Shown: in pieces, positions 5,249 to 34,693 of the stretch
How positions within the stretch are numbered: position 1 is the stretch's first letter
How the letters are laid out: every line of letters begins with the position of its first letter
NCBI GenBank assembly: GCA_027296625.1
Contig: JAPUIX010000068.1
Span: 1 to 36,200, forward strand
DNA from: Gammaproteobacteria bacterium
GTDB lineage: Bacteria > Pseudomonadota > Gammaproteobacteria > JAKEHO01
Direction of reading: 5' to 3'
DNA: 36,200 nucleotides
Notes under the pieces: generated by a model
The model's input: the letters and a program-made list of their open reading frames with translations, nothing else
Databases searched by the model: none
Told to the model about the DNA's origin: nothing
Made by a program: the position numbers and the translations under genes

Positions 5249-5252
5249 CCCA

Positions 5253-5960: not shown

Positions 5961-6021
5961 TCGATTTGCGTTGGGCGTTTACTTACCCGGAAATGGGCGG
6001 GTGCTAAGGGCGCTTAGCTGG

Positions 6022-6055: not shown

Positions 6056-6171
6056 CGGCTCGTAGACTACAGCACTCGGCACCGAGAACAGATGCGCCAT
6101 TGGCAAACTCAACGCCGAATTCACCGGGCGAAACCCCGACGAATCATCTTTCTCTGCGCCTTTTCGCGCGC

Positions 6172-6684
6172 TTAATTGTGCGCGGCGAAGGGGTGAGCAG
6201 CCTCGCCCTTCTTCTTGACTACCTCAGAGGCCTTGGGCTCACGTGCGACTGCACGCTTAATCGAAAGCTTAGTAGCCTCGTAATTGTAATCCTGAATCTT
6301 CGTGTTGTCCTCGGCCAGCCAGTGAATAAACACGCCGACGCAGATAAAAATATCGTCGGCCTCGTTAGCGGGGATGGTTCCATCCTCCACACAGTCCATC
6401 ACCGCCATAGCTACCGCACGCTGGGCAGGACCAAACATCTGAACAGCCTGGTCGGCGCTCTTGAGGGTAACCTTGTTAAACAGGATCGTATTGGGTTTAG
6501 CCGGCAGGTTTGGTGCAACCACGGCCATCAACGTATTGAACCCATCCTTCTGATTGGTCAGAGCGTTGCAAAAGGCCGTCTCGGCGGGACTGCCTCTTGG
6601 CCCCATAAGCAGGTCGACGTGCGCCACCTCATTGCCCTCGCCGACCAAGGCTTCACCTGTGAGTACTCTATCAATGACTGCCAT
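6172..6684 (-). CDS. fae: Formaldehyde-activating enzyme
   Basis: A 170-residue Fae, which condenses formaldehyde with H4MPT to methylene-H4MPT in the cytoplasm. The hallmark segments are [19 protein letters not shown] (containing the catalytic histidine region), [35 protein letters not shown] and the [10 protein letters not shown]...HPFAAHN end. Length is typical. The start at 6684 is preceded by GAGGAG about 10 nt upstream and gives the usual short N-terminus; an in-frame codon at 6735 would add 17 unlike residues. About 104 bp separate it from the preceding gene, and it has its own strong terminator, so it may also be made as a separate, abundant mRNA. The next step is catalysed by MtdB (10764-11690). 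Confidence 0.97.
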
Positions 6685-6788
6685 TTTTAATGCTCCTCTT
6701 GTTGTTGTCCCGAACAATTTTTTGAATATAGACATCGCTGCCTACCTATCGTTTTGCTTATAAGAAAGGGGGCCTACACCCGGTAAGG

Positions 6789-8617: not shown

Positions 8618-9605
8618 CTTGATTGCCGAAGGACGCGTCAAGCAGCTTCTCATCAAGTTGGCCCGCATGGAAACTCCGGCCACTATGGAGTTCAGTAACT
8701 GTCACCCGTGCTGGAGAAAACAGCATCGGGTCAATCTTAAAAAAGTCATAGTCGTGATCCTTAAATATTTGCGCAAAGGGCTTCCCGTAATCCCGGCAGG
8801 TACTGCTCGGCAGTGTTTCGGCAAGCTCGGCGGCCGCCGACTCCTCGCCCGTAACAAACAAGTGAACCTGCCCGCCAAAAACGATCGCATCATTGGTCCT
8901 GCCCATGGCGGTAATGAAATCCTTGGCAGGCGGGCACAATGGCGCACTGCCGGCGCCATCCACCACGTGCTCCAACGGAAAACCGAGGGCGTGGACCTTA
9001 TGTAGGGCCACCTCAAGCACCCGTGCAACCACCTGCACAGTGCCAGCGAGGCTCCGGGTGGGTGTCACGATCAAAGTCAACCCGTCAGGGCGAATACCAC
9101 ACATCTCGACAATCTTCTCGACCACAGCCATTGGCGGCGCCGTGTCGACCTCGAGAACGAGCGATGCACTCTGGGCCCGGTCACGATACCCCAATTCGTC
9201 AAATAAGGGCTCCTTGCTGCCCATGGCACGACCCGGGCCGGATCCAAGGGCATTGAAGGCCTCCTTCCCCTTGCCGTGCGACAGACTCCAACCCGCGTAC
9301 TGGCTGGCGAGGCAGGCGATAACCGGATCGCTTGCATACACATCCAGATGCCAATGCCAGTTTGTAAAGGTGTTGGCGCTGCGCAGGCTCACGTGACCAA
9401 GCCCACCCATGCAAATCTCCGCAATACGTCGCCCGGCCTCAAGGCCACCAGGCACCGTCATGCCGGCGTCCACCAACAGGCTTCCATTCTCAAGGACATC
9501 CACCTGAAGACGCAGTGATTGCGCGTCGTCAATGAGCGCTTCGACTAAGGGCTCTGCCAGTACGTTGACACTCGGTCGTGCCTGCGCATGTTCACTGCCA
9601 TTCAT
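8610..9605 (-). CDS. mch: Methenyl-H4MPT cyclohydrolase
   Basis: A 331-residue Mch, which interconverts methenyl-H4MPT and 5-formyl-H4MPT in the cytoplasm. Recognisable blocks are [53 protein letters not shown], the [21 protein letters not shown] block, [13 protein letters not shown], and the [11 protein letters not shown] end. Length is normal for the family. The first in-frame ATG is at 9605; a TTG at 9611 is possible but less likely. It lies 41 bp after the ATP-grasp gene at 9647-10780 and overlaps the next gene by 8 bp. Its substrate comes from MtdB and its product goes to the formyltransferases at 16613 and 23795. Confidence 0.96.
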
Positions 9606-9646
9606 TACCAACGCTTAAGCTTCTTGATTGGCGTACCATTTGATTC

Positions 9647-10780: not shown

Positions 10781-11690
10781 ACTCGCGCGCCACCTTAAAG
10801 GCATCCTGGAAATCTAGATACAAGGGCTTGCTCGTCTCGATCATCATCTGGCACAGCTTGGAGTGGACCTTGTATTTAACATTGCCGATTGCAAGCGCCC
10901 CAATGCCCACCGCCTTGGACGGAGTTACTTCCAATATCTTACCCATGTCATTCACATCCACACCTTCAATGCCGAGCGGCGGTACGGCGTTGCAGTCAGC
11001 AGCGACGATGAGCGCCTTGGAGTCTTTCAGGTCACTAGCTTTCACCACTCGCACACCCGCCTTAGCCGTGTTGATAATCACATGAGCCTGATTCAACATA
11101 TGCGCCGCGCGGAACGGCAGTACCAGCGCGTCGTCTATCCGGCTGTCCGCACCGTCCATGTGAACACCATAACGCTTGTTGAAGGGTTCGGCGATTGCCC
11201 GGACGTGCTCGGCGTTACGGCGACTGCCGAGAAACACATTGGCACCACATTCCGCCGCGATCACACCTGCACAGAGCCCGACCGGGCCCGTGCCACCAAA
11301 AACATACATATTGAGCCCCTCTAACGACACACCTTTTTTCTTATCCACCCAGGACTCAACACACGCGATCACTGCAGCGGCCGTCGTAAATGCGCCGCTG
11401 GGATCAGCGAAAACCGAGACTTCGAAGGGCGGGACCATGGCCCCTTTAGCGGCCTCCAGCATATCGACCGCCAGACCAAACTCTCGGCCGCCTATGAATA
11501 TCCCTGTTCGCTTTACACCTTTGGGTCCACGGGAAAAAATCGTGTCCTGCACCAAACCCGGTATCTCGTCCAGGGTGACACCACTGTAGGGAATGACATC
11601 GTTGTAGCCGGCCTCGTAGGCCATGTTGACATCGAAAGGACTTACGTTTCGGGTTGGATTGAACATATGCAATAGAAAGGGGTCTTTCAT
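10764..11690 (-). CDS. mtdB: NAD(P)-dependent methylene-H4MPT dehydrogenase
   Basis: A 308-residue enzyme oxidising methylene-H4MPT to methenyl-H4MPT with NAD(P). The nucleotide-binding fold shows as MYVFGGTGPVGLCAGVIAAECGANVFLGSRR in the middle. The N-terminus (HMFNPTRNVSPFDVNMAYEAGYN) and the region ending VGIGALAIGNVKYKVH match the MtdB family rather than MtdA or FolD. The ATG at 11690 has AAGGAG about 14 nt upstream. It is 28 bp downstream of the mptG stop. The enzyme acts between Fae and Mch, both encoded downstream on the same strand. Cofactor choice between NAD and NADP cannot be read from the sequence by eye. Confidence 0.95.
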   Translation of the reverse strand: MKDPFLLHMFNPTRNVSPFDVNMAYEAGYNDVIPYSGVTLDEIPGLVQDTIFSRGPKGVKRTGIFIGGREFGLAVDMLEAAKGAMVPPFEVSVFADPSGAFTTAAAVIACVESWVDKKKGVSLEGLNMYVFGGTGPVGLCAGVIAAECGANVFLGSRRNAEHVRAIAEPFNKRYGVHMDGADSRIDDALVLPFRAAHMLNQAHVIINTAKAGVRVVKASDLKDSKALIVAADCNAVPPLGIEGVDVNDMGKILEVTPSKAVGIGALAIGNVKYKVHSKLCQMMIETSKPLYLDFQDAFKVAREYAREA

Positions 11691-11718
11691 GATTGAGTCC
11701 GATACTCCTTATATTGCC

Positions 11719-12720
11719 TTAGGTAGACGTTGCCGAACTGGATAGCGGACGGCCATGAACTGCGATGTCAGCGCCTTTGTTGCGTGCCTTGCATACCATG
11801 AAAGAAAGTGGGCTATCTGGGTTGCAACGCGCACGTAAGTCGCGTAATACCTGATAGGCTCGCGTTTCATGGTCAAACACCGCGAACCCGGTTGGCCCCC
11901 AGGAACTCTGGCCCACCCCTAGTACTCCCTGCGCCTTTAGCCTCGCGATCACATCCCTCGCCAAGGGACTACTAAAACGCCCGCCTTGCCACACTGCGAA
12001 ATGGTCGCCGATCATCTCCTGGATCTCAGTGATCGCATATCCGAACCCGCAGTAATCGGCCTCGACCAATGCAGGCAACACCTGTAGCAGGACCAGTCGA
12101 CAAATATGCGACACCTTGCTCGGCGCCATTTTGGGTAATTGCTCAAACGCGATATGCTCCTCTAAGCCATCAATGCCCCGCCGTTCCCGATCAAATATAA
12201 GGAGTACGCGCCAAGCCTCCGGAAAGGCAATATGACTGATCACCGGCGGCACCAGCGTGCCAGCGCCTCTTCCACCGTCCACCAGAAATCCACCCAGATC
12301 GAATGCGCCGATGCCAAGACCCGAACGGGTCCCTCGCTCGACCCGGTTGGCGATCTCCAAGAGGCGGACATTAACCTCAAATAAACGGGCAATGGCCACG
12401 CCCACAGCAAGCGACAGCTGAGTCCCTGAGCCTAGCCCCACGTGTTCCGGGATGGCTTCCTCAAGTTCGATTTGGACATCGCGTCCCACGTTAAAGGACT
12501 TCAGAAAGGTCCTTGCACAGGCAAGCGCGCGTTTACTGGATGGCCCGCGGGCTGCAGATTTACCGTCCGAAGTGTCCCTGATGGTAAGCCGCGTACAGGG
12601 CTGGGATAAGCACAAGCCTAAACTGCCGAAACGCCGTCCCAGCTCGCCATTCATATCCATAAACCCCATGTGCAGGCGAGCCGGCGCTGTAACGCTGACA
12701 CTCGGGCCCCTTGCCCCCAT
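11719..12720 (-). CDS. mptG: Beta-ribofuranosylaminobenzene 5'-phosphate synthase
   Basis: A GHMP-kinase-fold enzyme of about 333 residues that joins p-aminobenzoate (or hydroxybenzoate) to PRPP with loss of CO2 and pyrophosphate, the committed step of methanopterin synthesis. Seen are SVTAPARLHMGFMDMNGELGRRFGSLG at the N-terminus, the GHMP loop PEHVGLGSGTQLSLAVG, TRSGLGIGAFDLGGFLVDGG, and GVGQSSWGPTGFAV near the C-terminus. I chose ATG 12720 because about ten residues then precede the conserved block; a GTG at 12774 would add 18 residues, and neither has a strong ribosome binding site. It is first in the minus-strand block, and the PabB gene nearby could supply its substrate. Confidence 0.92.
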   Translation of the reverse strand: MGARGPSVSVTAPARLHMGFMDMNGELGRRFGSLGLCLSQPCTRLTIRDTSDGKSAARGPSSKRALACARTFLKSFNVGRDVQIELEEAIPEHVGLGSGTQLSLAVGVAIARLFEVNVRLLEIANRVERGTRSGLGIGAFDLGGFLVDGGRGAGTLVPPVISHIAFPEAWRVLLIFDRERRGIDGLEEHIAFEQLPKMAPSKVSHICRLVLLQVLPALVEADYCGFGYAITEIQEMIGDHFAVWQGGRFSSPLARDVIARLKAQGVLGVGQSSWGPTGFAVFDHETRAYQVLRDLRARCNPDSPLSFMVCKARNKGADIAVHGRPLSSSATST

Positions 12721-13096
12721 GTTCTGTTGTCGCTCTTCTTTCACACGCAAATAGCCTAAGCCTATATCCTTCACCTACCGCTTAGTCTCACGGCGCGCAA
12801 GGCCCTATACTATATCGCATGCGACACAATCGATGCACTGGCTAGGCAGATCATCAAAGATAACCCCAAGCCTGTAGATCGATTCGGTGATGATTGAGGC
12901 AAATCGCAGCGCCATCTCCCTGAAATTCTCAGTCTGGCGACCTATGCAGACAATTTCTGGTCGAAAATGTAGCGAAATTGACGGCTGCAACGGGAAGTGG
13001 TACAAAAACGAGTGGCGTGGTAGAAAAGTAGGCGTTGGCTTTTCCCTATCCCCCTCAATCCCTTCATGTTCGTTTACAGTGCGGCGGAGACAGTTC
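12721..13096. other. Divergent promoter region between mptG and fwdD blocks
   Basis: About 376 bp separate the divergent starts (about 320 bp if mptG starts at the GTG at 12774). It holds a good plus-strand promoter candidate (12978-13006). On the minus strand, a TATAGT-like -10 lies at 12814-12809 without a clear -35 match. The open frames that cross this region lack family motifs, and no clear operator palindrome was found. Confidence 0.5.
12978..13006 (+). promoter_or_regulatory. Predicted sigma70-type promoter of the fwdD operon
   Basis: TTGACG (12978-12983), a 17-bp spacer, then TACAAA (13001-13006): five of six and four of six consensus matches at ideal spacing. The implied transcription start near 13013 leaves a leader of about 84 nt before fwdD. 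It is placed correctly to drive the first formyl-methanofuran cluster. Read by eye only. Confidence 0.5.
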
Positions 13097-13444
13097 ATGG
13101 TAGAGACGATGAGTCTAGTTGCCGGTCGCTCTAGCAAGCAGGGCACCGCCTTATGCGCCGGCAAGCTGGAGGACGAATATCGTGAAGTAACGTCCACTCT
13201 GGAGATGAACGTCGATGACATGGCCCGTCTCGGTTTGAAAGATGGCGATCCGGTGCGGCTAAGTACTGACGCGGGCGAAGCAGTGGTGCGCTGCATTGGT
13301 CGCAAAGCAGAGGACTTGCCCTTAGGCGTCTTGTTTATGGCCTACGGGCCGCCGTCAAGTCAGTTGATGGACAGCGATACGGCGGGTACCGGCATGCCGA
13401 TCTCAAAAAACTTTGAGGTCTTAGTTGAACCTGTAAAGGGTTAA
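13097..13444 (+). CDS. fwdD: Formylmethanofuran dehydrogenase subunit D (molybdopterin dinucleotide-binding)
   Basis: A 115-residue protein matching the FwdD/FmdD family, the small molybdopterin-dinucleotide-binding domain of archaeal formylmethanofuran dehydrogenase. Supporting segments are AGKLEDEYREVTSTLEMNVDDM, LGLKDGDPVRLSTDAGEAVVR, the LPLGVLFMAYGPPSSQL block and DTAGTGMPISKNFEVLVEP. The fold is the C-terminal beta-barrel domain of the DMSO reductase superfamily, here as a separate chain that would complete the cofactor pocket of FwdB. The ATG at 13097 has GGAG 7 nt upstream; earlier in-frame codons (to 12887) give unlike sequence. It lies 20 bp before fwdB. Characterised bacterial Fhc complexes have no such subunit, and there is none in the second set at 20822. 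Its presence argues that the neighbouring FwdB really binds a Mo or W cofactor. Confidence 0.88.
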   Translation: MVETMSLVAGRSSKQGTALCAGKLEDEYREVTSTLEMNVDDMARLGLKDGDPVRLSTDAGEAVVRCIGRKAEDLPLGVLFMAYGPPSSQLMDSDTAGTGMPISKNFEVLVEPVKG

Positions 13445-13464
13445 CTAACCTGCGAGGAAACAAG

Positions 13465-14832
13465 ATGAGCGAAAATATCCGTACCGTGGAAAATGCCACA
13501 TGCACCTTTTGCGGCTGCGTCTGCGACGACATGATCCTGACCGTCGACCTGGACGAGAAGCGCATTACTCGGGCCAAAAACGCGTGTGTCTTGGGACGCG
13601 CCTGGTTCGCCGGGCACAAACATGAAGAACGCCCGTTCGCCCTCATCGACGGTAAAGAAGCGACGACCGCCGAAGGTGTCGAAGAGGCTGCACAGATCCT
13701 GGCCAAGGCCCGTTTTCCGATTACCTATGGACTCAGTGATACGACCTGCGAGGCGCAGCGCCAAGCGGTCGCGATCGCCGATCTGATCGGTGCCAGCATC
13801 GATACAACAACGTCCGTATGTCATGGTCCATCGGGGATTGCCTTTGAGGGCATTGGCGAAAGCACCATGACCCTCGGCGAAGTTAAGAATCGTGCTGACT
13901 TAGTTATCTTTTGGGGCGGTAATCCAGCCGCATCACATCCCCGTCTCTTTACCCGCTACGCAGTAACGCCTAAAGGAATGTATGTGCCCAATGGTAAGAA
14001 GGATCGCACGGTCGTTTTAGTTGACGTCCGCCGCACACAGAGCGTGCCAGTCGCGAACATCTTTATTCAAATTAAGCCCCGCAGCGATTTCGAAGTGCTT
14101 TGGGCACTTAGAGCCTTGGTTAAGGGCCGCCGGATCGACCCGATTATCGAGGAGAGAACCGGAGTCTCATTAGCTACTTTAGAAGACTTGGTCGACCGTA
14201 TGAAGAATTGCCAGTATGGTGTCCTCCTATTCGGCATGGGATTGACCATGACCCGTGGCCGGCACTTCAACTCCGGGGCCCTGTTAGCGCTGGCAACCGA
14301 TCTGAACGATTACACACATTTTGTGGCCAAACCCGTTCGTGGGCACGGCAATGTGACTGGCGCGGATAATGTCCTTTCCTGGCAAACCGGATTTCCCTTC
14401 GCCGTTAACTTTAGTCGCGGATATCCCCGCTTCAATCCGGGTGAGTTTACAACGGTCGATCTCCTATCACGCGCTGAAGCCGATGCCGCCTTAATTATCG
14501 CAGCTGATCCGGCGGCGAACTTCCCTAAAGCCGCCGTTGAACACCTTCGAAAGATCCCCGTGATCCTACTCGATCCCAAACCCACCGACACCAGCCAACT
14601 TGCCCGTGTGGCCTTTACAACAGCCACCTATGGCATCAATACAGCAGGGACCGTGTACCGTATGGACGACGTGCCCATCACGTTGCGCCCGGCGTTCGAA
14701 TCACCTTATCCCAGTGATGAAGAGGTGTTGACTGCGATCAAGAAGCGTCTGCATGAGTTGACGTTGGCCAGGGGTGGCGCGTACGGGGCGGGCGCAACGC
14801 AACACGTCGCGGCGCCAGTGTCTTCCAGCTAA
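13465..14832 (+). CDS. fwdB: Formylmethanofuran dehydrogenase catalytic subunit B, Mo/W-site type
   Basis: A 455-residue member of the molybdopterin oxidoreductase superfamily, FwdB/FhcB branch. Cysteines at 13, 16, 18, 20 and 41 (CTFCGCVCDD, then KNAC) supply a [4Fe-4S] site. Residue C119 in SVCHGPSG (codon 13819-13821, TGT) aligns in position and context with the tungsten-ligating Cys118 of Methanothermobacter FwdB. Further archaeal-type blocks are LGEVKNRADLVIFWGGNPAASHPRLF, VTPKGMYVPNGKKDRTVVLVDVRRTQS, and the WQTGFPFAVNFSRGYPRFNPGEFTTVDLL region. These features predict reversible formate/CO2 conversion, in contrast to the paralogue at 20822. GAGGAAACAAG precedes the ATG. Whether the metal is Mo or W, and the direction in vivo, cannot be told. 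Confidence 0.92.
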   Translation: MSENIRTVENATCTFCGCVCDDMILTVDLDEKRITRAKNACVLGRAWFAGHKHEERPFALIDGKEATTAEGVEEAAQILAKARFPITYGLSDTTCEAQRQAVAIADLIGASIDTTTSVCHGPSGIAFEGIGESTMTLGEVKNRADLVIFWGGNPAASHPRLFTRYAVTPKGMYVPNGKKDRTVVLVDVRRTQSVPVANIFIQIKPRSDFEVLWALRALVKGRRIDPIIEERTGVSLATLEDLVDRMKNCQYGVLLFGMGLTMTRGRHFNSGALLALATDLNDYTHFVAKPVRGHGNVTGADNVLSWQTGFPFAVNFSRGYPRFNPGEFTTVDLLSRAEADAALIIAADPAANFPKAAVEHLRKIPVILLDPKPTDTSQLARVAFTTATYGINTAGTVYRMDDVPITLRPAFESPYPSDEEVLTAIKKRLHELTLARGGAYGAGATQHVAAPVSSS

Positions 14833-14855
14833 TCAAACCTAAGTTTCAGCCTTCT

Positions 14856-16490
14856 ATGCTCCGCATCGTCAATGGTAGAGTCTACGACCCTGCCAACAAC
14901 GTGGATGGGGAAGTACGCGATATCTGCATACAAGATGGCAAGATTGTAGAAAGCGTACCGCCGGATGCAAAACGCATCGACGCCCAGGGTATGGTCGTGA
15001 TGCCCGGTGGTGTCGACATTCATTGCCACATCGCTGGTCCCAAAGTTAATCTGGCGCGCAAACTGCAGCCCGAAGATCATCGCCACGATGTCCATCCCGG
15101 TACACCGTTCACACGTTCCGGTACGGGTGGGGTGGTCCCTTCAACCTTTACAACAGGCTATCGCTATACAGCTTTGGGCTATACCACCGCAATGGAGGCG
15201 GCTGTGCCACCCATTGGGGCCCGCCATGCCTTGGAAGAACTCCACGATACACCAGTGATCGATAAGGGGTTTTACGTCCTGCTTGGTAACAACGTCTTTC
15301 TTTACCAACTGCTTAAAGAAGGGCGAATGGACCAGTTTCGCCAGGCTGTCGCGTGGTGGCTAAACGTTACCAAGGCCTACGCCGCAAAGCTCGTCAACCC
15401 CGGCGGAGATGAACTCTGGAAAGGACGGCGCAATGCAAATATTACTAGGCTCGATGAAAAAATTGATCACTTTGACATTACCCCACGCCAAGTAATCAAG
15501 GCGTTCATAGAAGTCGTTAGTGAAATCGGTCTGCCTCATCCGCCCCATATCCACTGCAATAACTTGGGTCAAAGCGGTAACTACAAGACCACACTTGAGA
15601 CGATGCGCACAGCAGGAGACAAACGCGCCCATATCGCCCACATTCAGTTTCACAGCTATGGCGGTGAGCCGGGGAAGAATCCTACCTCAAAAGCTCCTGA
15701 GATCGCTGAATACATCAATGCGCACCCAAATATCAGTGCCGATGTGGGGCAAGTGATGTTCGGTAAAGCCACAATCATGACTGGTGATGCACCGATGGCC
15801 TGGTTGCTGCGTCAAATTACCGGGAATAAATGGGTAAACGCTGATACTGAACACGAGAGCGGCTGCGGCATTATCCCCTTCGCCTACCAAGAACATATTT
15901 ATACCCACGCCCTACAATGGGCAATCGGGTTGGAGTTGTTTCTCCTATCGCAGGACCCCTGGCGTTTGGTACTCTCAACTGATCATCCAAACGGTGGTTC
16001 GTTTATGAATTATCCCCGTCTGATCCGGTTACTCATGGATCGCACATTCCGCAATGAGCAGATTGGCTTGGTGAATCAAAAAGCAATTCGTAAAACCGTG
16101 CTGTTGGATGATCTTGACCGTGAATATTCCTTACAAGAGATTGCGATTGTCACGCGGGCCGGTCCAGCAAAGCTATTAGGGCTGCGTAACAAAGGTCAAT
16201 TGGGTGTTGCGGCTGACGCCGACGTTACAATTTATGAGGAGCATGACGACAAGGAACAGATGTTTAGTGCGCCGCGCTATGTCATCAAAGACGGACAGTT
16301 AATCATCGAAGATCATGAATTCCGCTCTGACCATGAAGGCCGTCTACTCCATGTTGCTCCTGAGTACGATCCTGAGATCGAACAAGCGATTCGGCCTTTC
16401 TTCGAGGATTACTACACAATTGAATTTAACAACTATGCAGTTAACGATAGCTACTTACATCGCCATGAAACGATATCAACGACAACATAG
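14856..16490 (+). CDS. fwdA: Formylmethanofuran hydrolase subunit A (amidohydrolase fold), first copy
   Basis: A 544-residue urease-type amidohydrolase of the FwdA/FhcA family, which hydrolyses formyl-methanofuran to formate plus methanofuran at a dinuclear metal site. Ligand candidates are all present: H56 and H58 (DIHCH), K178 (AAKLVNPGG, the position carboxylated in archaeal FwdA), H231/H233 (HIHCNN), H262/H266 (HIQFHSYG) and D376 (STDHPNGG). Length and motif spacing match the archaeal subunit. In the archaeal complex formate passes through an internal channel to FwdB; the intact FwdB next door allows the same here, by inference. It starts 23 bp after fwdB, without a clear Shine-Dalgarno sequence. 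A divergent paralogue is at 22128. Confidence 0.95.
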   Translation: MLRIVNGRVYDPANNVDGEVRDICIQDGKIVESVPPDAKRIDAQGMVVMPGGVDIHCHIAGPKVNLARKLQPEDHRHDVHPGTPFTRSGTGGVVPSTFTTGYRYTALGYTTAMEAAVPPIGARHALEELHDTPVIDKGFYVLLGNNVFLYQLLKEGRMDQFRQAVAWWLNVTKAYAAKLVNPGGDELWKGRRNANITRLDEKIDHFDITPRQVIKAFIEVVSEIGLPHPPHIHCNNLGQSGNYKTTLETMRTAGDKRAHIAHIQFHSYGGEPGKNPTSKAPEIAEYINAHPNISADVGQVMFGKATIMTGDAPMAWLLRQITGNKWVNADTEHESGCGIIPFAYQEHIYTHALQWAIGLELFLLSQDPWRLVLSTDHPNGGSFMNYPRLIRLLMDRTFRNEQIGLVNQKAIRKTVLLDDLDREYSLQEIAIVTRAGPAKLLGLRNKGQLGVAADADVTIYEEHDDKEQMFSAPRYVIKDGQLIIEDHEFRSDHEGRLLHVAPEYDPEIEQAIRPFFEDYYTIEFNNYAVNDSYLHRHETISTTT

Positions 16491-16558
16491 ATAAAAAATT
16501 CATAAACACTGGGATTTCGTAAGCAACCGGTTTTGTTCAAACTACATTAGCACCATTT

Positions 16559-16564
16559 TACAAT
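16559..16564 (+). promoter_or_regulatory. Weak candidate -10 element upstream of ftr
   Basis: TACAAT sits in the AT-rich 122-bp gap between fwdA and ftr, about 49 bp before the ftr start. There is no good -35 at normal spacing (TTGTTC at 16533-16538 is 20 bp away). It may allow separate expression of ftr and fwdC; low confidence. Confidence 0.25.
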
Positions 16565-16612
16565 AGCCTGCCGCAAAAGATGGCTAGGGTTTTGGCAAAA
16601 TAAAGAAAAATA

Positions 16613-17506
16613 ATGCGCATCCAAGCCACCGAAATCATTGATACCTTTGCCGAGGCCTTCGAGATGTGGGCCGCGAGAATCATCATCACCGCGGAAACCC
16701 ATCAATGGGCAACTGCAGCGGCACAATCCATGACCGGCTTCGCTACTTCGGTCATTGGATGCAAATGCGAAGCAGGGATTGAGCGCGACCTCACCGCTGA
16801 TGAAACGCCTGATCGGCGCCCCGGCATTAGTGTTCTGCTGTTCGCCACTTCCAGTGAAGGCATAGGTAAACGCCTTGTCGAGCGCGTCGGCCAAAGTATC
16901 ATGACCTGCCCTACAACAGCCTGCTTTAACGGGCTCACCAGCGAGAGTGATGTGGTCGTCGGCGGACAACTTCGCTACTTTGGCGACGGCTATCAGATCA
17001 GCAAACAGTTGGACGGGCGTCGTTTCTGGCGGATCCCGGTAATGGATGGTGAGTTCTTAGTTGAAGATCGCTTCGGCGTTCAGCCTGCTGTTGGTGGCGG
17101 TAATATCTTAATATTAGGGAAAGATATGCAGACAACCCTGCGTGCCGCCAAGGCAGCCACAAAAGCCATGAGGGAGGTGCCTGGTGTTATTCTGCCGTTC
17201 CCAGACGGTGTTGTCCGCAGTGGCAGCAAGCCCGGGTCCAGATACAAGGCCCTATTTGCTTCAACCAATGATCCGTACTGTCCCACGCTGCGTGCCATCG
17301 CCCCAGAAACAAAGGTGAACGCCGACGTAAACAGTGTACTGGAAATCGTCCTGGATGGCCTCGATCTTAACGCCGTTGAGGTTGCCATGCGCCATGGCAT
17401 TTATGCCGCCGCCAGACGCGGCATCAAGCAAATTTCCGCAGGCAATTACGGTGGCGATTTGGGTCAATATCAAATCCGCCTGTACGATCTCATCAAGGAT
17501 CAATGA
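16613..17506 (+). CDS. ftr: Formylmethanofuran:H4MPT formyltransferase, first copy
   Basis: A 297-residue Ftr/FhcD, which moves the formyl group between H4MPT and methanofuran. Family blocks include IIDTFAEAFEMWAARIIITA, the GFATSVIGCKCEAGIE segment, TPDRRPGISVL, RVGQSIMTCPTTACFNG, LRYFGDGYQ, VGGGNILILG, and ISAGNYGGDLGQYQIRL. Length is normal. The ATG at 16613 is the first codon compatible with the family start; only an A-rich weak ribosome binding site precedes it. A 122-bp gap after fwdA and a 77-bp gap before fwdC contrast with the tightly packed second cluster. In bacteria FhcD is part of the Fhc complex; in methanogens Ftr is a free enzyme. Which applies here cannot be read from the sequence. 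Confidence 0.95.
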   Translation: MRIQATEIIDTFAEAFEMWAARIIITAETHQWATAAAQSMTGFATSVIGCKCEAGIERDLTADETPDRRPGISVLLFATSSEGIGKRLVERVGQSIMTCPTTACFNGLTSESDVVVGGQLRYFGDGYQISKQLDGRRFWRIPVMDGEFLVEDRFGVQPAVGGGNILILGKDMQTTLRAAKAATKAMREVPGVILPFPDGVVRSGSKPGSRYKALFASTNDPYCPTLRAIAPETKVNADVNSVLEIVLDGLDLNAVEVAMRHGIYAAARRGIKQISAGNYGGDLGQYQIRLYDLIKDQ

Positions 17507-17583
17507 GTGATGAACCTCTCATCTATCAAGATTATATCCGTAGGCTGTAGAGCCAGCTTTGATGTTACATCAGCGTTGCCCAG

Positions 17584-18393
17584 ATGAGCCTTAAACTATC
17601 ATTACATACTGTTCCCGAAGTACCGCTAGAAGCTGAGTCCATCACACCCGACCGGCTCGCTGACCTAAGCGAGGCGGACATCGCAGCACTACCCGTTCAC
17701 CATGGAAATCAACAATCTTCCATTGGAGATTTCTTCTCCGTCTCAGGAAACGGTAATAGCGAAATACAAATTGAAGGCGACTTAACCCGCGTCAAGCTTA
17801 TTGGAGTTGGCATGACATATGGGCGCATCATAATTGAGGGTAATGTCGGCTTACATGTAGGTGCCGCCATGTCAGGTGGCGAAATAATTGTTAAAGGCGA
17901 CGCTGGGGATTGGGTCGGTCCTGAAATGTCAGGCGGTCGAATTGTTGTAAAGGGCAATGCCGGCCATCTCGTTGGAAGTGTATACCGTGGCGGGCGCATC
18001 GGCATGCGGGGTGGTGAAATTATCATCCACGGTAACGCGGGCAATGAAGTAGGTAATGGAATGCGTAGCGGCCTAATCGCAATCGGTGGCGATTGCGGCG
18101 ACTTCACCGGTGTTAACATGCTAGCAGGGACAATTATTGTCGTCGGGAAACTTGGATGGCGGTGCGGTGCCGGCATGAAGCGCGGCGCGATCGTCTCAAT
18201 GCACGATGCCGAGCTGCTCCCCACTTTTAGTTATGCGTGCACGTACCAGCCGGCTTTTTTGCGCCTTTATCTACTCCACTTGAACGAACTCGGCTTGCCG
18301 ATTAGCGACGCCCATATGAATGGTCAATACCGGCGCTTCAGTGGTGATGCCGTAGAACTGAACCGTGGAGAAGCGTTGCTACTTAAATCTTAG
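17584..18393 (+). CDS. fwdC: Formylmethanofuran dehydrogenase subunit C, first copy
   Basis: A 269-residue beta-helix protein. Roughly residues 60-200 are glycine-rich repeats of about 19 residues (G-x2-G-x3-G pattern: IEGDLTRVKLIGVGM, IEGNVGLHVGAAM, VKGDAGDWVGPEM, VKGNAGHLVG, IHGNAGNEVGNGM), as in FwdC and the C-terminal domain of glutamate synthase. The subunit is structural, holding FwdA and FwdB together and, in bacteria, contributing to methylofuran binding. The ATG at 17584 lacks a clear Shine-Dalgarno. It ends the first formyl-methanofuran set; a hairpin follows at 18448. A divergent paralogue is at 24688. Confidence 0.93.
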   Translation: MSLKLSLHTVPEVPLEAESITPDRLADLSEADIAALPVHHGNQQSSIGDFFSVSGNGNSEIQIEGDLTRVKLIGVGMTYGRIIIEGNVGLHVGAAMSGGEIIVKGDAGDWVGPEMSGGRIVVKGNAGHLVGSVYRGGRIGMRGGEIIIHGNAGNEVGNGMRSGLIAIGGDCGDFTGVNMLAGTIIVVGKLGWRCGAGMKRGAIVSMHDAELLPTFSYACTYQPAFLRLYLLHLNELGLPISDAHMNGQYRRFSGDAVELNRGEALLLKS

Positions 18394-18531: not shown

Positions 18532-18837
18532 ATGACGACCATCATAACTGATAACTGTATTGATTGCCGCTTCACGGACTGCGTAGAAGTGTGCCCAGTC
18601 GCCTGTTTTCATGGTGATGACAAGCAGCTCTACATTGATCCAGAAGTGTGCATCGACTGCAGCGCCTGCATTCCGGAATGTCCCGTAGAAGCAATCTACG
18701 AAGACGATGACATTCCTGAGGACAAGTTGCATTGGATTGAGATAAATGCCGAACGGGCACCGCAGCTTCCAGTGGTGGACTCACAAGTAGATCCGTTGCC
18801 CACAGCAGAAGCAAAAAAAGCCGAGCTTGGCTTCTGA
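18532..18837 (+). CDS. fdxA: 7Fe ferredoxin ([3Fe-4S][4Fe-4S], FdxA type)
   Basis: A 101-residue soluble ferredoxin. The cysteine pattern matches Azotobacter ferredoxin I shifted by one residue: C9, C17 and C50 for the [3Fe-4S] cluster, C21, C40, C43 and C46 for the [4Fe-4S] cluster, with C12 at the position of the free cysteine. The C-terminal extension (about residues 60-101) is also typical of FdxA. TTAGGAGAA precedes the ATG, a strong site. It lies between the fwd set and a ferredoxin-NADP reductase, so it is a plausible electron carrier for the formylmethanofuran dehydrogenase. FdxA proteins have other roles in many proteobacteria, so the pairing is inference. Confidence 0.95.
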   Translation: MTTIITDNCIDCRFTDCVEVCPVACFHGDDKQLYIDPEVCIDCSACIPECPVEAIYEDDDIPEDKLHWIEINAERAPQLPVVDSQVDPLPTAEAKKAELGF

Positions 18838-19139: not shown

Positions 19140-20516
19140 ATGAGCAAGCTCGGGACAGAGCAAAACCCCTTGAAGGTAGCCGTCGTAGGCAGTGGGCCGA
19201 GCGGCTTTTACGCTACCGAGTCGCTTCTCAAATCTGAGCACAATGTTCTGATTGATATGCTTGAGCGGCTCCCTGCCCCGTATGGGCTTGTGCGAAACGG
19301 CGTTGCTCCAGATCATCCGAAACTTAAGCAAGTAATCTTGGTGTATGAAAAGATTGCCGAAGCTCCCGAGTTTAACTTTTTGGGGAACGTCTTGGTTGGC
19401 CGTGATGTAAGTGTTGAAGAGCTTAAAGATACCCACCATGCGATCATTTTCGCGTGCGGTGCAGAGACAGACCGCACGCTCGGTATACCGGGTGAAGACT
19501 TGCCGGGCAGTCACACCGCAACTGAGTTCGTAGGGTGGTACAACGGGCATCCTGATTATCACGACCGTGTCTTTGATCTGTCTAACGAAGTAGCTGTCAT
19601 CATAGGCCAAGGCAACGTGGCGACCGACGTATGTCGGCTGCTTGCTAAGACTGTCGACGAATTAAAGCACACCGACATCACTGAGCACGCGCTCACGGCG
19701 CTTGCCAACAGCAAAATCCGCGAGATCCACATTATCGGCCGCCGTGGACCCGCCCAGGCCAAGTTCACGCCCGCGGAACTCCGGGAGCTTGGCGATATGG
19801 CCAGTTGCGACGCGATCGTTAGGCCAAGCGACCTGGAACTGAATCCTGAAAGCCTGACTGAACTCGCCGATAAGACTAATCGAATAAACGCAAAGAACAT
19901 CAAGATCTTTCAGGAATATTCAGACCAAGCAGCGCCGACAAAGCACCGTAGATGCTATTTTCACTTCCTGAAAAGTCCTGTCGAACTGGCAGGAAACGGG
20001 CGCCTAGAGCGTGTCGTACTCGAGAAGAACCAGCTCACAGGTGAACCATTCCAACAGGCCGCCCAGGGAACAGGTGAGCGCGAAGAGCTGGCATGTGGCT
20101 TACTTTTCCGCAGTATTGGCTACCACGGTATCCCAATTCCCGGGGCCCCTTTCAATGAGCGACGCGGCGTTTTTCCAAATCGAGATGGGCGGCTCCTTGA
20201 CAGCAATCAGTCCGTGATACCGGCCCTTTATGCCACCGGTTGGATTAAACGGGGTCCCACCGGGATAATCGGGACGAATCGCGCAGACAGTGTTGCAACG
20301 GTAAAGGCGCTGCTGGAGGACCTTGGCAAACTTTCTGACGATACAAAACCTGGCGCCGATGGGCTCTACCCCCTGCTAACCGAACGGGGTATTCGGGTAA
20401 TCAGTTTTGCAAACTGGCGTGAAATCGATGCGGTGGAAGTTGAGCGAGGTAAGCCCAAGGGCAAACCTCGCGAAAAGTTTACAACTGTGAAAGACATGCT
20501 GGAGGTCCTCAACTAG
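19140..20516 (+). CDS. fprA: Ferredoxin-NADP reductase, adrenodoxin-reductase (FprA) type
   Basis: A 458-residue flavoprotein that transfers electrons between ferredoxin and NADP(H) in the cytoplasm. The FAD site GSGPSG is at residues 17-22, the family signature APYGLVRNGVAPDHP at 46-60, the NADP-binding GQGNVATD at 156-163, and a C-terminal ATGWIKRGPTGIIGTN joins FAD and nicotinamide. These features place it with FprA/adrenodoxin reductase rather than the plant-type FNR. TAGGAGG lies about 8 nt before the ATG. Its place directly after a ferredoxin gene, between two formyl-methanofuran gene sets, suggests that it turns ferredoxin reduced by FwdABCD into NADPH, or works in reverse. The family assignment is firm; the pathway link is inference. 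Confidence 0.95.
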   Translation: MSKLGTEQNPLKVAVVGSGPSGFYATESLLKSEHNVLIDMLERLPAPYGLVRNGVAPDHPKLKQVILVYEKIAEAPEFNFLGNVLVGRDVSVEELKDTHHAIIFACGAETDRTLGIPGEDLPGSHTATEFVGWYNGHPDYHDRVFDLSNEVAVIIGQGNVATDVCRLLAKTVDELKHTDITEHALTALANSKIREIHIIGRRGPAQAKFTPAELRELGDMASCDAIVRPSDLELNPESLTELADKTNRINAKNIKIFQEYSDQAAPTKHRRCYFHFLKSPVELAGNGRLERVVLEKNQLTGEPFQQAAQGTGEREELACGLLFRSIGYHGIPIPGAPFNERRGVFPNRDGRLLDSNQSVIPALYATGWIKRGPTGIIGTNRADSVATVKALLEDLGKLSDDTKPGADGLYPLLTERGIRVISFANWREIDAVEVERGKPKGKPREKFTTVKDMLEVLN

Positions 20517-20821: not shown

Positions 20822-22108
20822 ATGCAAGCGCCAAATTCTCACCGCCTATCAACATCAACGTTTACTAACGTATCCTGCCCGTTTTGCAGTCTACTCTGCG
20901 ACGATCTCATCATAAAAAATAGTGGCGGGCAGTTGCATGTAGAAAGAAATGGCTGCACCAAAGCGATCGCAGGTTTCGAGCGTTCGGTAATCAAAACGTC
21001 CCCTCGCATCCAGGGTAGAGAGGCCTCCCTAAAAGAAGCCGTCGACTGCACCGCGAGGATGCTTCGTGCCGCAAAGCAGCCCCTCTTCAGTGGCCTAGGC
21101 ACGGATGTAGCTGGTATGCGTGCTGTCTTGCCTCTAGCTGAACGCACAGGCGCCATCTTGGACCACATGCACGGTGATGCCGAAACACCTCATGTGCTGG
21201 CCCTGCAAGACGGCGGCTGGATGAGCACAACGCTCACTGAGATCAGAAATCGCGCTGATCTTATTATCTTTGCAGGCACTGATGTCGTTAGCGATTTCCC
21301 ACGCTTTTTCGAACGGATCGTGTGGAACTCGCATGGCCTGTTCGATCTTAAGCCAGAACAACGTGACATTATTTACATAGGACGTCGTTTAAACACAGCA
21401 CCAGGACGGAGTCCTAAAGGCCGCAAGCCGCTCCACATTGAGTGCGATCAGCGTCGATTACTGGAAATCGTATCAGTACTCCGTACGCTACTTAGAGGCG
21501 GTGCCATCCAGGTTCGCAGTGTCGCCGGAGTATCGATCTCGGTACTACAGACCCTTATCGAGCGGATGCAGAAAGCCCGTTATGGCGTCTTGGTATGGGC
21601 GCCAGCTGCACTTGATTTTCCGCACACTGATCTTGCGATACAAGTGTTCTATGAGCTCGTAAAAGATCTCAACAAGACGACCCGCTTCTCTGGCTTCTCT
21701 CTGGGCGGGAATGACGGAGGCATAACAGCAACCAATGTCTGCACGTGGCAAACCGGCTATCCGCTTCGTACCGGCTTCTCACGAGGCTATCCTAAATACG
21801 ATGCATGGCGCTATTCAACGAAATCCTTGCTGGAACATGGCACTATTGACACATTAGTCTGGATTTCATCCCTTAGCACACAGCCTCCCCCAGTGGGATC
21901 GGAAACGCCGACTATTGTGCTTGGCGTGCCCCAGTTCAAGTTTAGTGAAGAACCTGATGTATTTATCCCAGTAGGCACACCTGGTGTGGATCATAACGGG
22001 CAGTTGTTTCGATGCGATAATGTTGTCGCATTGCCGATGCGCACGCTTAGACAGTCTCCGTTGCCTAGCGTCGCCTCCGTAATTACTGCAATTCACGAAC
22101 TTTTATAA
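20822..22108 (+). CDS. fhcB: Formyltransferase/hydrolase complex subunit B (catalytic cysteine lost)
   Basis: A 428-residue FhcB paralogue. It keeps an N-terminal four-cysteine motif (C19, C22, C26, C45; CPFCSLLCDD then NGC), so it could still hold an Fe-S cluster. At the Mo/W ligand position the segment AILDHMHGDAETP replaces SIDTTTSVCHGP: ungapped alignment from the shared ILD/SID places A120 opposite C119 of the first copy and E121 opposite the histidine. No FwdD gene is present. These are marks of the bacterial Fhc complex, in which subunit B has no redox catalysis and formate is released. Blocks shared with the first copy include TEIRNRADLIIFAGTDV and WQTGYPLRTGFSRGYPKYDAW. It starts the tight set fhcBADC. 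Confidence 0.92.
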   Translation: MQAPNSHRLSTSTFTNVSCPFCSLLCDDLIIKNSGGQLHVERNGCTKAIAGFERSVIKTSPRIQGREASLKEAVDCTARMLRAAKQPLFSGLGTDVAGMRAVLPLAERTGAILDHMHGDAETPHVLALQDGGWMSTTLTEIRNRADLIIFAGTDVVSDFPRFFERIVWNSHGLFDLKPEQRDIIYIGRRLNTAPGRSPKGRKPLHIECDQRRLLEIVSVLRTLLRGGAIQVRSVAGVSISVLQTLIERMQKARYGVLVWAPAALDFPHTDLAIQVFYELVKDLNKTTRFSGFSLGGNDGGITATNVCTWQTGYPLRTGFSRGYPKYDAWRYSTKSLLEHGTIDTLVWISSLSTQPPPVGSETPTIVLGVPQFKFSEEPDVFIPVGTPGVDHNGQLFRCDNVVALPMRTLRQSPLPSVASVITAIHELL

Positions 22109-22127
22109 CAGTGCACGCAGCCGCAGA

Positions 22128-23792: not shown

Positions 23793-23794
23793 GG

Positions 23795-32334: not shown

Positions 32335-32399
32335 TTGCGTCTCTATTACTCCAATTCTTATCGCTCCAACCTTGAGGCCTGACGAGCGTTTTGCAAGCT

Positions 32400-32818: not shown

Positions 32819-34693
32819 TTACGGCAGGCTGAAGGCGGTCAGCACGCCACCCAGGCGGGTGTAATGCTTCAGGCCCTTATAGGCGCCCACGGCACCGAGC
32901 CCATCCGTGTCCTTCTCAAGACCAGCCGCAAAGCCGATGCCGGCCCAACCACCGAGCCCAGACAGCACACCAACGTACTGCTTGCCCTTGTGGCTCCAGG
33001 AATTGGTGTTGGCAATGATCCCGGACGGGGTCTTGAACTTCCACAACAATTTGCCGGTGTTGGCGTCAATGGCCTTGAGGTAGCCTTCCAGAGTGCCATA
33101 GAACACCACATCACCCGCAGTCGCCAGCACGCCGCTCCAGACGGAGAACTGCTCCGGAATGGACCAAACAATCTTGCCCTTATCAGCATCCCAGGCAATC
33201 ATATTACCCAGATTGTTGGTGCCATCACCCGTCACCTTACCGGCCGGGAACATATTGAGGATCGCATTTACAAACGGCTGACCGGCAACATACTGATTGG
33301 CACCCGCCGCGTAACTCACAGGCTCATAGTCCATGCACACGTGATTGGTGGGTACATAGAACAGGCCCGTGCGCGGTGAGTAGGCCGCCGGCTGCTGATC
33401 CTTCACGCCTAACGCCGCCGGGCAGATGTTGGTGGTGTTGACATCTTCACCCTGAGCGTCCGTGCTGTAACGAGACACCACCTGTGGACGTCCCGTCTTC
33501 ATGTCCACATGGGTTGCCCAGTTGGTAGCCGGATCATACTTCTCGGCTACCAGCAGCTCACCGGTGATACGGTCCAGCGTGTACCCAAAGCCATTCCGGT
33601 CGAAATGTACCAGGGCCTTGCGGTTCTTGCCCTTGACCTTCATGTCGACCAGGATCATCTCGTTGACGCCGTCATAGTCCCACTCATCATGGGGCGTCAT
33701 CTGATAGACCCATCGGGCAATCCCGGTGTCCACGTCGCGAGCCATAATAGTCATGCTCCACTTGTTGTCACCCGGACGCACGACCGGATTCCAGGTCCCT
33801 GGATTGCCGGTGCCGTAGTAGATGAGGTTCTCGGCCTTGTCCCAAGGCCACCAGCCCCAAATGCTACCGCCGCCTTGCTTCCACTGATCGCCTTTCCAGG
33901 TTTTGGTGCTGGAGTTCTTGCCAACTGGCTTCAGCATTGACTTAGTGTTTGAGTCAAAGAGCATGTCCGCATCCGGCCCCATGCTGAAGGCCCGCCATGC
34001 CAGGCTGCCGTCCGAGATGTTATAAGCCGCCATCCAGCAGCGCACACCAAACTCAGCACCGGAGCAACCAGTGAAGATCTTGTCCTTGATGGGGTGCGGG
34101 GCGTGGGTGTTGGTCTGCCCCTGCTTGGGACCGTAGGGACCACCCATCGCTGCGGAGATATCACCGCCATTCTTAATCGACCAAACCTTCTCACCCGTTG
34201 CGGCATTGATTGCCACGAGGGTGGTGTCGGCCTGCTGCAGGAAGATCTTGCCTTCAGCGTAACTGAGACCACGGTTGACCGTGTCGCAGCACATCACAGG
34301 CACGACTTCATCCCAGTCCTGTATCGGTTTGTACTCCCATACGATCTCGAGGTTATCAAGGTTAATGGCGAACGTGTTGTTAGGAAACGCAGCATGGATG
34401 TACAGCGTGTCGTGATCCAGACCCGTAGCGCTACCGGGTAATACCAGCGGACCCCCTTCATGACCACGCAGTACGCCCGTGGAGAACGTCCATGCTGCCT
34501 GAAGTTTACCGGCGTTCTTGTTGTTGATCTGCTTCAACTCAGTGTAACGCCAGTTCCAATAGTTCCCGCCCGGATAGGCCCAATAGTTAGGGTCCTGAGT
34601 CAGCTTCAGTACCCCCTCATTGGCCAATACCGAGGCGGGAATGGCGAGGGCAACGACCGCCACAAGCCACCGTCTCATTGATGATTTACTCAT
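32819..34693 (-). CDS. xoxF: Lanthanide-dependent PQQ methanol dehydrogenase
   Basis: A 624-residue periplasmic quinoprotein with a signal peptide ([24 protein letters not shown]). The vicinal cysteines C135-C136 (VMCCDTV) form the disulfide ring over PQQ. The active-site segment [12 protein letters not shown] contains D339-Y340-D341; the second Asp coordinates the lanthanide and is replaced by Ala in calcium-type MxaF, so this is XoxF. Tryptophan-rich beta-propeller motifs recur ([36 protein letters not shown]). It oxidises methanol to formaldehyde, possibly on to formate. GGAGGAGG lies right before the ATG at 34693. It ends in a strong terminator and is transcribed divergently from a SoxYZ-like gene. 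No xoxG cytochrome is adjacent. Confidence 0.97.

What the first reader, a model, noticed from the sequence alone, without database searches (positions are those of the whole stretch)
13097..18393. A bacterial gene set that looks like a redox-active formylmethanofuran dehydrogenase (FwdDBA-Ftr-FwdC)
Seen: FwdB at 13465 carries C119 in a SVCHGP motif at the position of the tungsten ligand of archaeal FwdB (Cys118), Fe-S cysteines at 13, 16, 18 or 20 and 41, and is preceded by a separate FwdD molybdopterin-dinucleotide-binding subunit. The FwdA copy keeps K178 and all metal-site residues. Known: in characterised methylotrophs the related Fhc complex has lost redox chemistry and has no FwdD. Inference: this bacterium can oxidise formyl-methanofuran directly to CO2, or reduce CO2, by an archaeal-type route.
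Basis: partly seen in the sequence, partly recalled or inferred. Interest (0 to 1): 0.92.

Follow-up and report, generated by a model that had tools for sequence, protein, structure and literature searches.

The report
NADP-linked formylmethanofuran dehydrogenase in a methylotroph
This uncultured methanol-oxidising bacterium carries, next to the usual formate-releasing Fhc enzyme, a second complete archaeal-type tungsten/molybdenum enzyme that has kept all its redox active-site residues and is genetically tied to an electron chain leading to NADPH, so it can probably burn formyl groups straight to CO2.

Summary
fwdD-fwdB-fwdA-ftr-fwdC lie at 13097-18393. FwdB C119 aligns with tungsten ligand Cys118 of M. 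wolfei FwdB, and an AlphaFold model (pLDDT 90.6) matches archaeal FwdB at TM 0.89. The Fhc B subunit has lost the Cys and His.

In 84/84 related bacterial FwdBs Cys118, His119, Arg288 and His290 are invariant; in 0/53 FhcBs is the Cys or His kept. (In an unbiased class survey 13/13 carry FwdD.) fdxA-fprA flank Fwd in 43 of 57 loci with readable flanks, but 0 of 20 Fhc-only loci. In eight Methylococcales loci FwdD is instead fused to a CysJ-type NADPH diflavin reductase.

Best reading: a redox-competent Fwd that oxidises formyl-methanofuran to CO2 and delivers electrons to NADP+. CO2 reduction is unlikely with this partner (-530 mV from NADPH). Bacterial FwdDBA-Ftr-FwdC with Cys118 was reported before (PMC7325909), so this is a new variant, not a new kind. 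Activity, metal and direction are untested.

The parts
13097..13444 (+). fwdD: molybdopterin-dinucleotide-binding subunit D (115 aa)
   Evidence: Pfam PF01568 over cut-off; FwdD structures 2ki8, 9sfi, 8rja, 7bkb, 5t5i are the best PDB matches; next to fwdB in 13/13 surveyed Fwd genomes
13465..14832 (+). fwdB: Mo/W-bis-pterin catalytic subunit; C119 metal ligand, H120, R292, H294; 4Fe-4S C13 C16 C20 C41
   Evidence: AlphaFold model pLDDT 90.6 matching 8rja_B at TM 0.89/0.94, rmsd 1.8
14856..16490 (+). fwdA: binuclear-metal amidohydrolase subunit; H56 H58 K178 H233 H262 D376, gate K63
   Evidence: TIGR03121 715 bits; residue mapping to 5t5i_A
16613..17506 (+). ftr: formylmethanofuran:H4MPT formyltransferase of the Fwd cassette
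   Evidence: TIGR03119 414.8 bits
17584..18393 (+). fwdC: beta-helix subunit
   Evidence: TIGR03122 281.4 bits, cut-off 130.65
18532..18837 (+). fdxA: FdxA-type dicluster ferredoxin, presumed electron acceptor of FwdB
   Evidence: NCBIfam FdxA_Protbact 116 bits, below its cut-off of 135; linked to Fwd but not to Fhc-only loci
19140..20516 (+). fprA: NADPH:ferredoxin reductase (FprA/adrenodoxin reductase type), presumed Fd -> NADP+ step
   Evidence: 415 bits to M. tuberculosis FprA 1lqt, 357 to adrenodoxin reductase 1cjc
20822..22108 (+). fhcB: scaffold subunit of a separate Fhc complex; tungsten-Cys and His lost (GDAETP), Fe-S cysteines kept
   Evidence: TIGR03129 343.7 bits
22128..23792 (+). 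fhcA: hydrolase subunit of Fhc, metal-site residues kept
   Evidence: TIGR03121 774 bits
23774..24691 (+). fhcD: formyltransferase of Fhc (start codon uncertain)
   Evidence: TIGR03119 411 bits
24688..25503 (+). fhcC
   Evidence: TIGR03122 264.6 bits
25538..27223 (+). NAD-linked formate dehydrogenase, fused gamma-beta subunit (2Fe-2S + FMN/NADH domain)
   Evidence: PF01257, PF01512, PF10589
27207..30005 (+). formate dehydrogenase alpha subunit
   Evidence: TIGR01591 775.7 bits, cut-off 666
6172..6735 (-). fae, formaldehyde-activating enzyme (feeds the H4MPT pathway)
   Evidence: TIGR03126 247.7 bits
8610..9611 (-). mch, methenyl-H4MPT cyclohydrolase
   Evidence: TIGR03120 399.8 bits
10764..11690 (-). 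mtdB-like methylene-H4MPT dehydrogenase
   Evidence: PF09176 122.8 bits
11719..12774 (-). beta-RFAP synthase (methanopterin biosynthesis), divergent neighbour of fwdD
   Evidence: TIGR00144 160.3 bits, cut-off 113.5
32819..34693 (-). XoxF-like PQQ methanol dehydrogenase (XoxJ-like partner at 30821-31705)
   Evidence: TIGR03075 662 bits, MoxJ family 284 bits

Best explanation
The locus encodes a redox-competent formylmethanofuran dehydrogenase (FwdDBA-C with its own formyltransferase). Methanol is oxidised to formaldehyde (XoxF) and taken by Fae, MtdB and Mch to formyl-H4MPT. Ftr moves the formyl group to a methanofuran-type carrier, FwdA hydrolyses it to formate inside the complex, and the formate passes to the Mo/W-bis-pterin site of FwdB-FwdD and is oxidised to CO2. 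Electrons leave through the 4Fe-4S cluster to FdxA and then, through FprA, to NADP+ (-530 to about -320 mV, roughly -40 kJ/mol). The neighbouring Fhc plus NAD-formate dehydrogenase is the parallel, non-redox route via free formate. Shown: gene content, catalytic residues, fold, conserved linkage. Inferred: metal occupancy, activity, the electron path and its direction.
For: Cys118/His119/Arg288/His290 invariant in 84/84 bacterial FwdB, Cys and His absent in 53/53 FhcB. Of 86 columns invariant in five archaeal FwdB, 59 are kept in at least 95% of bacterial Fwd and 19 in Fhc; the losses in Fhc include the metal-site motifs. FwdD adjacent in 13/13 unbiased hits and 76/80 scan hits. Three separate clades, archaeal Fwd, bacterial Fwd, Fhc. 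Model matches 8rja/5t5i FwdB better than Fhc. dN/dS 0.05 for fwdB against 0.16 for fhcB between congeners. fdxA-fprA linked in 43/57 Fwd loci with readable flanks and 0/20 Fhc-only loci. Independent second link to NADP(H): FwdD fused to a full FMN/FAD/NADPH diflavin reductase in Methylococcales. MoaA in 13/13 and MobA in 6/6 Fwd genomes tested. Three Fwd genomes (G039, G179, G286) have Mch but neither Fhc nor a formate dehydrogenase over any cut-off tested, so Fwd is the only visible exit to CO2. Potentials and an archaeal precedent for swapping the acceptor module: PMC11493965.
Against: No biochemistry; metal and activity are not testable here. FwdD falls below the strict NCBIfam FwdD cut-off. 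No FdhD (sulfur-ligand insertion) was found in the window's genome, nor in G001, G028 or G173, although it was in G039, G179, G286 and others. Archaeal FMDs are described as oxygen-sensitive (PMC11656701), and the host looks aerobic. 8 of 57 loci (Chloroflexota, Alphaproteobacteria, Planctomycetota) have no linked NADP module. In G245, which has no Fwd hit, fprA still sits next to fhcB. Free ferredoxin may have other users.
Confidence: 0.68

Rival explanations
1. A redox-active Fwd that oxidises formyl-methanofuran, but whose electrons go elsewhere (respiratory chain or other low-potential users), fdxA-fprA being a neighbour with another job.
For: 8 of 57 loci have Fwd without a linked NADP module; fprA stays beside fhcB in G245, which has no Fwd hit; FdxA-type ferredoxins serve many enzymes (own knowledge).
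Against: 0/20 Fhc-only loci carry fdxA or fprA nearby; a physically different NADPH module is fused to FwdD in Methylococcales.
Confidence: 0.17
2. The Fwd set works in the CO2-reducing direction (CO2 fixation into the C1 pool), driven by reduced ferredoxin.
For: Archaeal homologues run both ways (PMC11656701); some bacterial hosts may be anaerobes (own inference).
Against: Window partners are FprA (NADPH) and XoxF/Fae methylotrophy; -530 mV is far below NADPH (PMC11493965 plus textbook); no hydrogenase, bifurcating or polyferredoxin gene was seen in the window.
Confidence: 0.07
3. The set is non-redox, a second formyltransferase/hydrolase in which FwdB-FwdD keep cofactor residues without catalysis.
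For: Closest characterised bacterial complex is a hydrolase; Fhc and formate dehydrogenase already give a complete route in this genome.
Against: The four metal-site residues checked are invariant across several phyla while true Fhc lost the Cys and His; low dN/dS; genomes without Fhc and recognised formate dehydrogenase keep it.
Confidence: 0.06
4. Assembly artefact or archaeal contamination in one metagenome bin.
For: The genome is a 188-contig assembly.
Against: Same contig holds the bacterial H4MPT, fhc and xoxF genes; same cassette in a congener and in many other assemblies; tree places it in a bacterial clade.
Confidence: 0.01

Closest known systems
Archaeal tungsten formylmethanofuran dehydrogenase Fwd (M. 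wolfei 5t5i; Ca. Ethanoperedens 8rja)
   Same: Subunits A, B, C, D; Cys118 ligand, His119, Arg288, His290, 4Fe-4S cysteines, amidohydrolase site; fold TM 0.89
   Different: No FwdE, FwdF or FwdG in the window; Ftr inside the operon; FdxA and FprA in place of polyferredoxin or F420 modules; methylotrophic bacterial host
Formyltransferase/hydrolase complex Fhc (M. extorquens 6s6y)
   Same: A, B, C and Ftr genes together; amidohydrolase site
   Different: Fhc lacks FwdD, the Cys ligand and pterin; it is the second set in this window (20822-25503) that belongs there
fwdDBA-ftr-fwdC of Hakuba Actinobacteria (Merino et al. 2020, PMC7325909)
   Same: Same gene order; Cys118 and the 4Fe-4S domain reported in bacteria
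   Different: No methanopterin synthesis genes seen there, role proposed in growth on CO; no FdxA-FprA link or FwdD fusion described in the passages read
Bacterial FwdB homologues of the MopB survey (PMC10100899)
   Same: 149 bacterial FwdB counted, inferred transfer from Archaea
   Different: No analysis of FwdD, of co-occurrence with Fhc, or of electron partners in the passages read
F420-reducing Fwd of Ca. Ethanoperedens (PMC11493965)
   Same: Fwd core with an added reductase that redirects electrons to a -340 mV carrier
   Different: There F420 in an archaeon; here NADP(H) in bacteria, by FprA or by a fused diflavin reductase

Membership tests
Formylmethanofuran dehydrogenase (Fwd/Fmd) | FwdB with Cys or Sec metal ligand and neighbouring His/Arg | tested here: met
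   C119, H120, R292, H294 = wolfei C118, H119, R288, H290
Formylmethanofuran dehydrogenase (Fwd/Fmd) | Separate FwdD pterin-nucleotide-binding subunit | tested here: met
   PF01568 over cut-off and five FwdD structures as best matches; below the strict NCBIfam model cut-off
Formylmethanofuran dehydrogenase (Fwd/Fmd) | N-terminal 4Fe-4S cysteines in FwdB | tested here: met
   C13, C16, C20, C41
Formylmethanofuran dehydrogenase (Fwd/Fmd) | FwdA amidohydrolase with His4-Asp-carboxylysine site | tested here: met
   Candidate ligands (four His, Asp, Lys178) and gate Lys conserved against 5t5i_A
Formylmethanofuran dehydrogenase (Fwd/Fmd) | FwdC subunit | tested here: met
   TIGR03122 over cut-off
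Formylmethanofuran dehydrogenase (Fwd/Fmd) | Polyferredoxin FwdF/FwdG electron module of methanogens (accessory, not present in all members) | tested here: not met
   No such ORF among the genes annotated in the window; FdxA-FprA instead. The electron module differs among archaeal members (PMC11493965, PMC11656701), so it was not taken as defining
Formylmethanofuran dehydrogenase (Fwd/Fmd) | Bound Mo/W-bis-PGD and formyl-methanofuran:acceptor activity | not testable with these tools
   Needs purified protein
Fhc formyltransferase/hydrolase | B subunit without metal-ligand Cys/His | tested here: not met
   Fwd set has both; the 20822 set has neither
Fhc formyltransferase/hydrolase | No FwdD | tested here: not met
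   FwdD present at 13097
Fhc formyltransferase/hydrolase | Ftr gene and subunit in the complex | tested here: inconclusive
   ftr lies in the operon; physical association not testable

The most novel reading that the evidence does not exclude
Methylotrophic and methanotrophic bacteria hold an NADP-coupled formylmethanofuran dehydrogenase, wired either through FdxA-FprA or by fusion of FwdD to a CysJ-type diflavin reductase. It oxidises formyl-methanofuran directly to CO2 and makes NADPH, bypassing free formate, and coexists with the non-redox Fhc.
Probability: 0.6. Interest if true: 0.85.

Novelty: new variant of a known kind. Interest (0 to 1): 0.72.

Why it matters
Textbook bacterial C1 oxidation ends with Fhc releasing formate and a formate dehydrogenase oxidising it. 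If this reading is right, many uncultured methylotrophs and methanotrophs, including the soil atmospheric-methane oxidiser USCgamma (Taylor) and Methylococcales such as OPU3, have a second ending that conserves the low potential of the formyl group as NADPH. That would alter growth-yield and NADPH budgets for environmentally important methane sinks. Having the redox-active and the redox-dead complex side by side in one genome, with a fused FwdD-diflavin reductase in others, also makes the evolution from archaeal Fwd to bacterial Fhc directly testable. Automatic names do not separate the two: both B subunits pass TIGR03129.

Tried and rejected
A first AlphaFold model from 12 close sequences was poor (pLDDT 65) and was replaced with a 65-row alignment. 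I hoped FwdB would be the only Moco enzyme in the 1.1-Mb genomes, which would make Moco genes proof of a metal site; each also has another, unclassified DMSOR-family protein, so that argument was dropped. FdhD presence was tried as a marker of an active FDH-like site and was mixed. Contamination was rejected on synteny in a congener. The genome-contig scan used the peptides E[NHD]ATCTFC and DTTTSVCH, so conservation of Cys119 among those 80 loci is partly built in; the unbiased support is the 13/13 hits of the protein-based class survey. One alignment (A2) included a formate dehydrogenase segment by mistake and was not used. Literature searches found no description of FdxA-FprA linkage or of a FwdD-diflavin fusion; only open-licence papers are held, and Adam et al. 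2019 and Hemmann et al. 2019 could not be read.
Full report
OBSERVATION. The window is contig C68 of a 2.42-Mb, 188-contig, 97.7% complete genome. Its only same-genus relative in the survey, G001, has a contig of the same length (94,068) and the same locus coordinates as JAKEHO010000008.1, Gammaproteobacteria isolate PMV_7.24, so the host is an uncultured gammaproteobacterium. ORFs and family searches place fwdD 13097-13444, fwdB 13465-14832, fwdA 14856-16490, ftr 16613-17506 and fwdC 17584-18393 on the + strand. FwdB scores 497.8 bits against TIGR03129 (cut-off 327.8). The best solved structures are archaeal FwdB chains (8rja 390 bits, 9sfi 372, 5t5i 369); M. extorquens FhcB gets 55 bits. C119 of SVCHGP falls on Cys118 of SVCHGP in M. 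wolfei; in 9sfi the residue there is X, perhaps selenocysteine. The Fe-S ligands are C13, C16, C20 and C41; C18 is extra. FwdD is a true D subunit by its PDB matches, though below NCBIfam's strict FwdD cut-off. FwdA keeps H57, H59, K178, H231, H271, D385 and gate Lys64 in wolfei numbering.

Directly after fwdC come fdxA (18532-18837) and fprA (19140-20516). FprA gives 415 bits to M. tuberculosis NADPH-ferredoxin reductase FprA and 357 to adrenodoxin reductase. Then follows a second B-A-Ftr-C set at 20822-25503 and an NAD-type formate dehydrogenase at 25538-30005. The second B subunit has GDAETP where SVCHGP stands in Fwd: it is a true Fhc. The - strand at 1183-12774 carries methanopterin-cofactor genes with Fae, Mch and MtdB, and a XoxF-type methanol dehydrogenase with XoxJ lies at 30821-34693. 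So one 36-kb contig holds methanol oxidation, the H4MPT pathway, a redox-type Fwd, a non-redox Fhc and a formate dehydrogenase.

HOW WIDESPREAD. A protein search of 369 genomes of the class gave a bimodal result: 13 genomes with Fwd-type FwdB (65-90% identity) and, below a wide gap, Fhc types at 34% or less; 8 genomes have both, 5 Fwd only, 28 Fhc only. In all 13, fwdD is next to fwdB. A scan of 84,980 species genomes found 277 stretches encoding relatives and kept 80: mostly gammaproteobacterial MAGs, among them USCgamma Taylor, Methylococcales OPU3, Methylothermaceae and the sponge symbiont Porisulfidus, plus MAGs labelled Alphaproteobacteria, Gemmatimonadota, Chloroflexota and Planctomycetota; 76 of 80 have fwdD in the locus. 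That scan used peptides containing the Cys motif, so only the class survey is unbiased for Cys119.

RESIDUES, TREE, FOLD. Over 84 bacterial FwdB, 53 FhcB and 5 archaeal FwdB: Cys118 (X in 9sfi, entered as C), His119, Arg288 and His290 are invariant in Fwd and archaea, and Cys and His are absent from every FhcB. Twenty-three archaeal-invariant columns are kept in at least 95% of Fwd and in at most 20% of Fhc; they include C118, H119, G120, P121, W149, N152, D185, R187, R288, H290 and N292. PMC11656701 names Cys118's neighbours His119 and His290 among the residues at the metal, and says that absence of D and loop remodelling in B caused pterin loss in M. extorquens. A tree (IQ-TREE quick, PMSF) separates archaea, bacterial Fwd (98) and Fhc (100), each one clade; the Fhc branch is very long, so deep order within Bacteria is uncertain. 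An AlphaFold model (65 rows, pLDDT 90.6) matches 8rja_B at TM 0.89/0.94 and rmsd 1.8, and 5t5i_B at 0.88, against 0.68 for M. extorquens FhcB. Between the two congeners dN/dS is 0.05 for fwdB, fwdA, fwdC and fdxA and 0.07 for fprA, but 0.16 for fhcB; synonymous changes are near saturation, so these are rough.

THE ELECTRON PARTNER. Of 57 Fwd loci with at least 7 kb downstream and 3 kb upstream of fwdB, 43 carry both fdxA and fprA, 1 fprA alone, 5 a fused FwdD, and 8 (3 Chloroflexota, 2 Alphaproteobacteria, 3 Planctomycetota) none; five of the 43 are duplicate fetches of the same contigs. In 20 Fhc-only loci of 17-20 kb from the same class there is not one fdxA or fprA, while the neighbouring H4MPT and formate dehydrogenase genes are often shared. 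The cassette fwdDBA-ftr-fwdC-fdxA-fprA thus sits between the RFAP-synthase gene and fhcB, which are direct neighbours in most Fhc-only loci. One exception, G245, has no Fwd hit but keeps fprA next to fhcB. The counts are not phylogenetically independent.

A FUSION. In Methylococcales loci fwdD lies on the opposite strand, head to head with fwdB, and is the N-terminal 112 residues of a 728-736-residue protein whose remainder is a complete diflavin reductase: TIGR01931 (CysJ) 685 bits over its cut-off of 668, with flavodoxin, FAD and NAD domains, and 441 bits to the sulfite reductase flavoprotein structure 6efv. It is in one open frame in L131, L135, L137, L139, L141, L142 and L148, and cut by the contig end in L136; L138 has masked bases there. 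Two structurally unrelated NADPH modules, one linked and one fused, point to the same function. NADP(H) as end carrier is inferred from the families.

MECHANISM. Formyl-methanofuran to CO2 has E0' -530 mV (PMC11493965). To NADP+ (-320 mV, textbook) this is about -40 kJ/mol, so oxidation is strongly favoured and CO2 reduction by NADPH is not. Archaeal precedent exists for re-wiring Fwd with a reductase (F420, PMC11493965). Bacteria that live with oxygen can make W-bis-MGD and a W formate dehydrogenase active under aerobic conditions (PMC13197769), which answers part of the oxygen objection. All 13 Fwd genomes have MoaA, and the 6 tested have MobA, over cut-off. Three Fwd genomes (G039, G179, G286; 1.1-1.7 Mb, 97-98% complete) have Mch but no Fhc, no formate dehydrogenase over a curated cut-off and no XoxF, so Fwd appears to be their only route from formyl to CO2. 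They do have at least one further unclassified DMSOR-family enzyme each, so this is supportive, not decisive. FdhD is present in those three but not found in the window's genome, an open point.

KNOWN OR NEW. Bacterial fwdDBA-ftr-fwdC with Cys118 was reported in Hakuba Actinobacteria (PMC7325909), and bacterial FwdB homologues of archaeal origin were counted (PMC10100899). What I did not find described in the open literature searched: coexistence with Fhc in methylotrophs, the fdxA-fprA cassette, and the FwdD-diflavin reductase fusion. Subscription papers could not be checked. By membership tests the complex meets the sequence-level features of Fwd/Fmd and fails those of Fhc; metal and activity remain untested. 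I file it as a new variant of formylmethanofuran dehydrogenase.

Noticed in passing
L137:7524-9725 (- strand); also L131, L135, L136, L139, L141, L142, L148: FwdD fused to a CysJ-type FMN/FAD/NADPH diflavin reductase in Methylococcales methanotroph MAGs, divergent from fwdB.
   Followed up: yes
window 20822-22108 and most gammaproteobacterial FhcB: FhcB keeps all four 4Fe-4S cysteines (40 of 53) although the Mo/W site is gone; M. extorquens FhcB lacks this N-terminal domain altogether. Why a scaffold keeps a cluster site is unexplained.
   Followed up: partly
L068 (G039), L069 (G286), L066 (G179): Small genomes (1.1-1.7 Mb) with Fwd-FdxA-FprA and Mch but no Fhc, no recognised formate dehydrogenase and no XoxF; the C1 source is unknown.
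   Followed up: partly
L150:438-2765, L152:1733-3976, L155:580-2868: A 750-780 aa molybdopterin oxidoreductase (CPHDCPDTCSMLVT) in those genomes, below the cut-off of every NCBIfam model; unclassified.
   Followed up: no
L145:1972-3759 (Planctomycetota): An aldehyde ferredoxin oxidoreductase (usually a tungsten enzyme) lies between fwdC and fwdD.
   Followed up: no
L158 (G245:C33): A relative without any Fwd hit still has fprA directly beside fhcB, as if fwdDBA-ftr-fwdC-fdxA had been deleted.
   Followed up: partly
L128:8841-9257: An Rrf2/NsrR-type Fe-S regulator gene sits upstream of fwdD in an alphaproteobacterial MAG, a possible oxygen or NO switch for Fwd.
   Followed up: no
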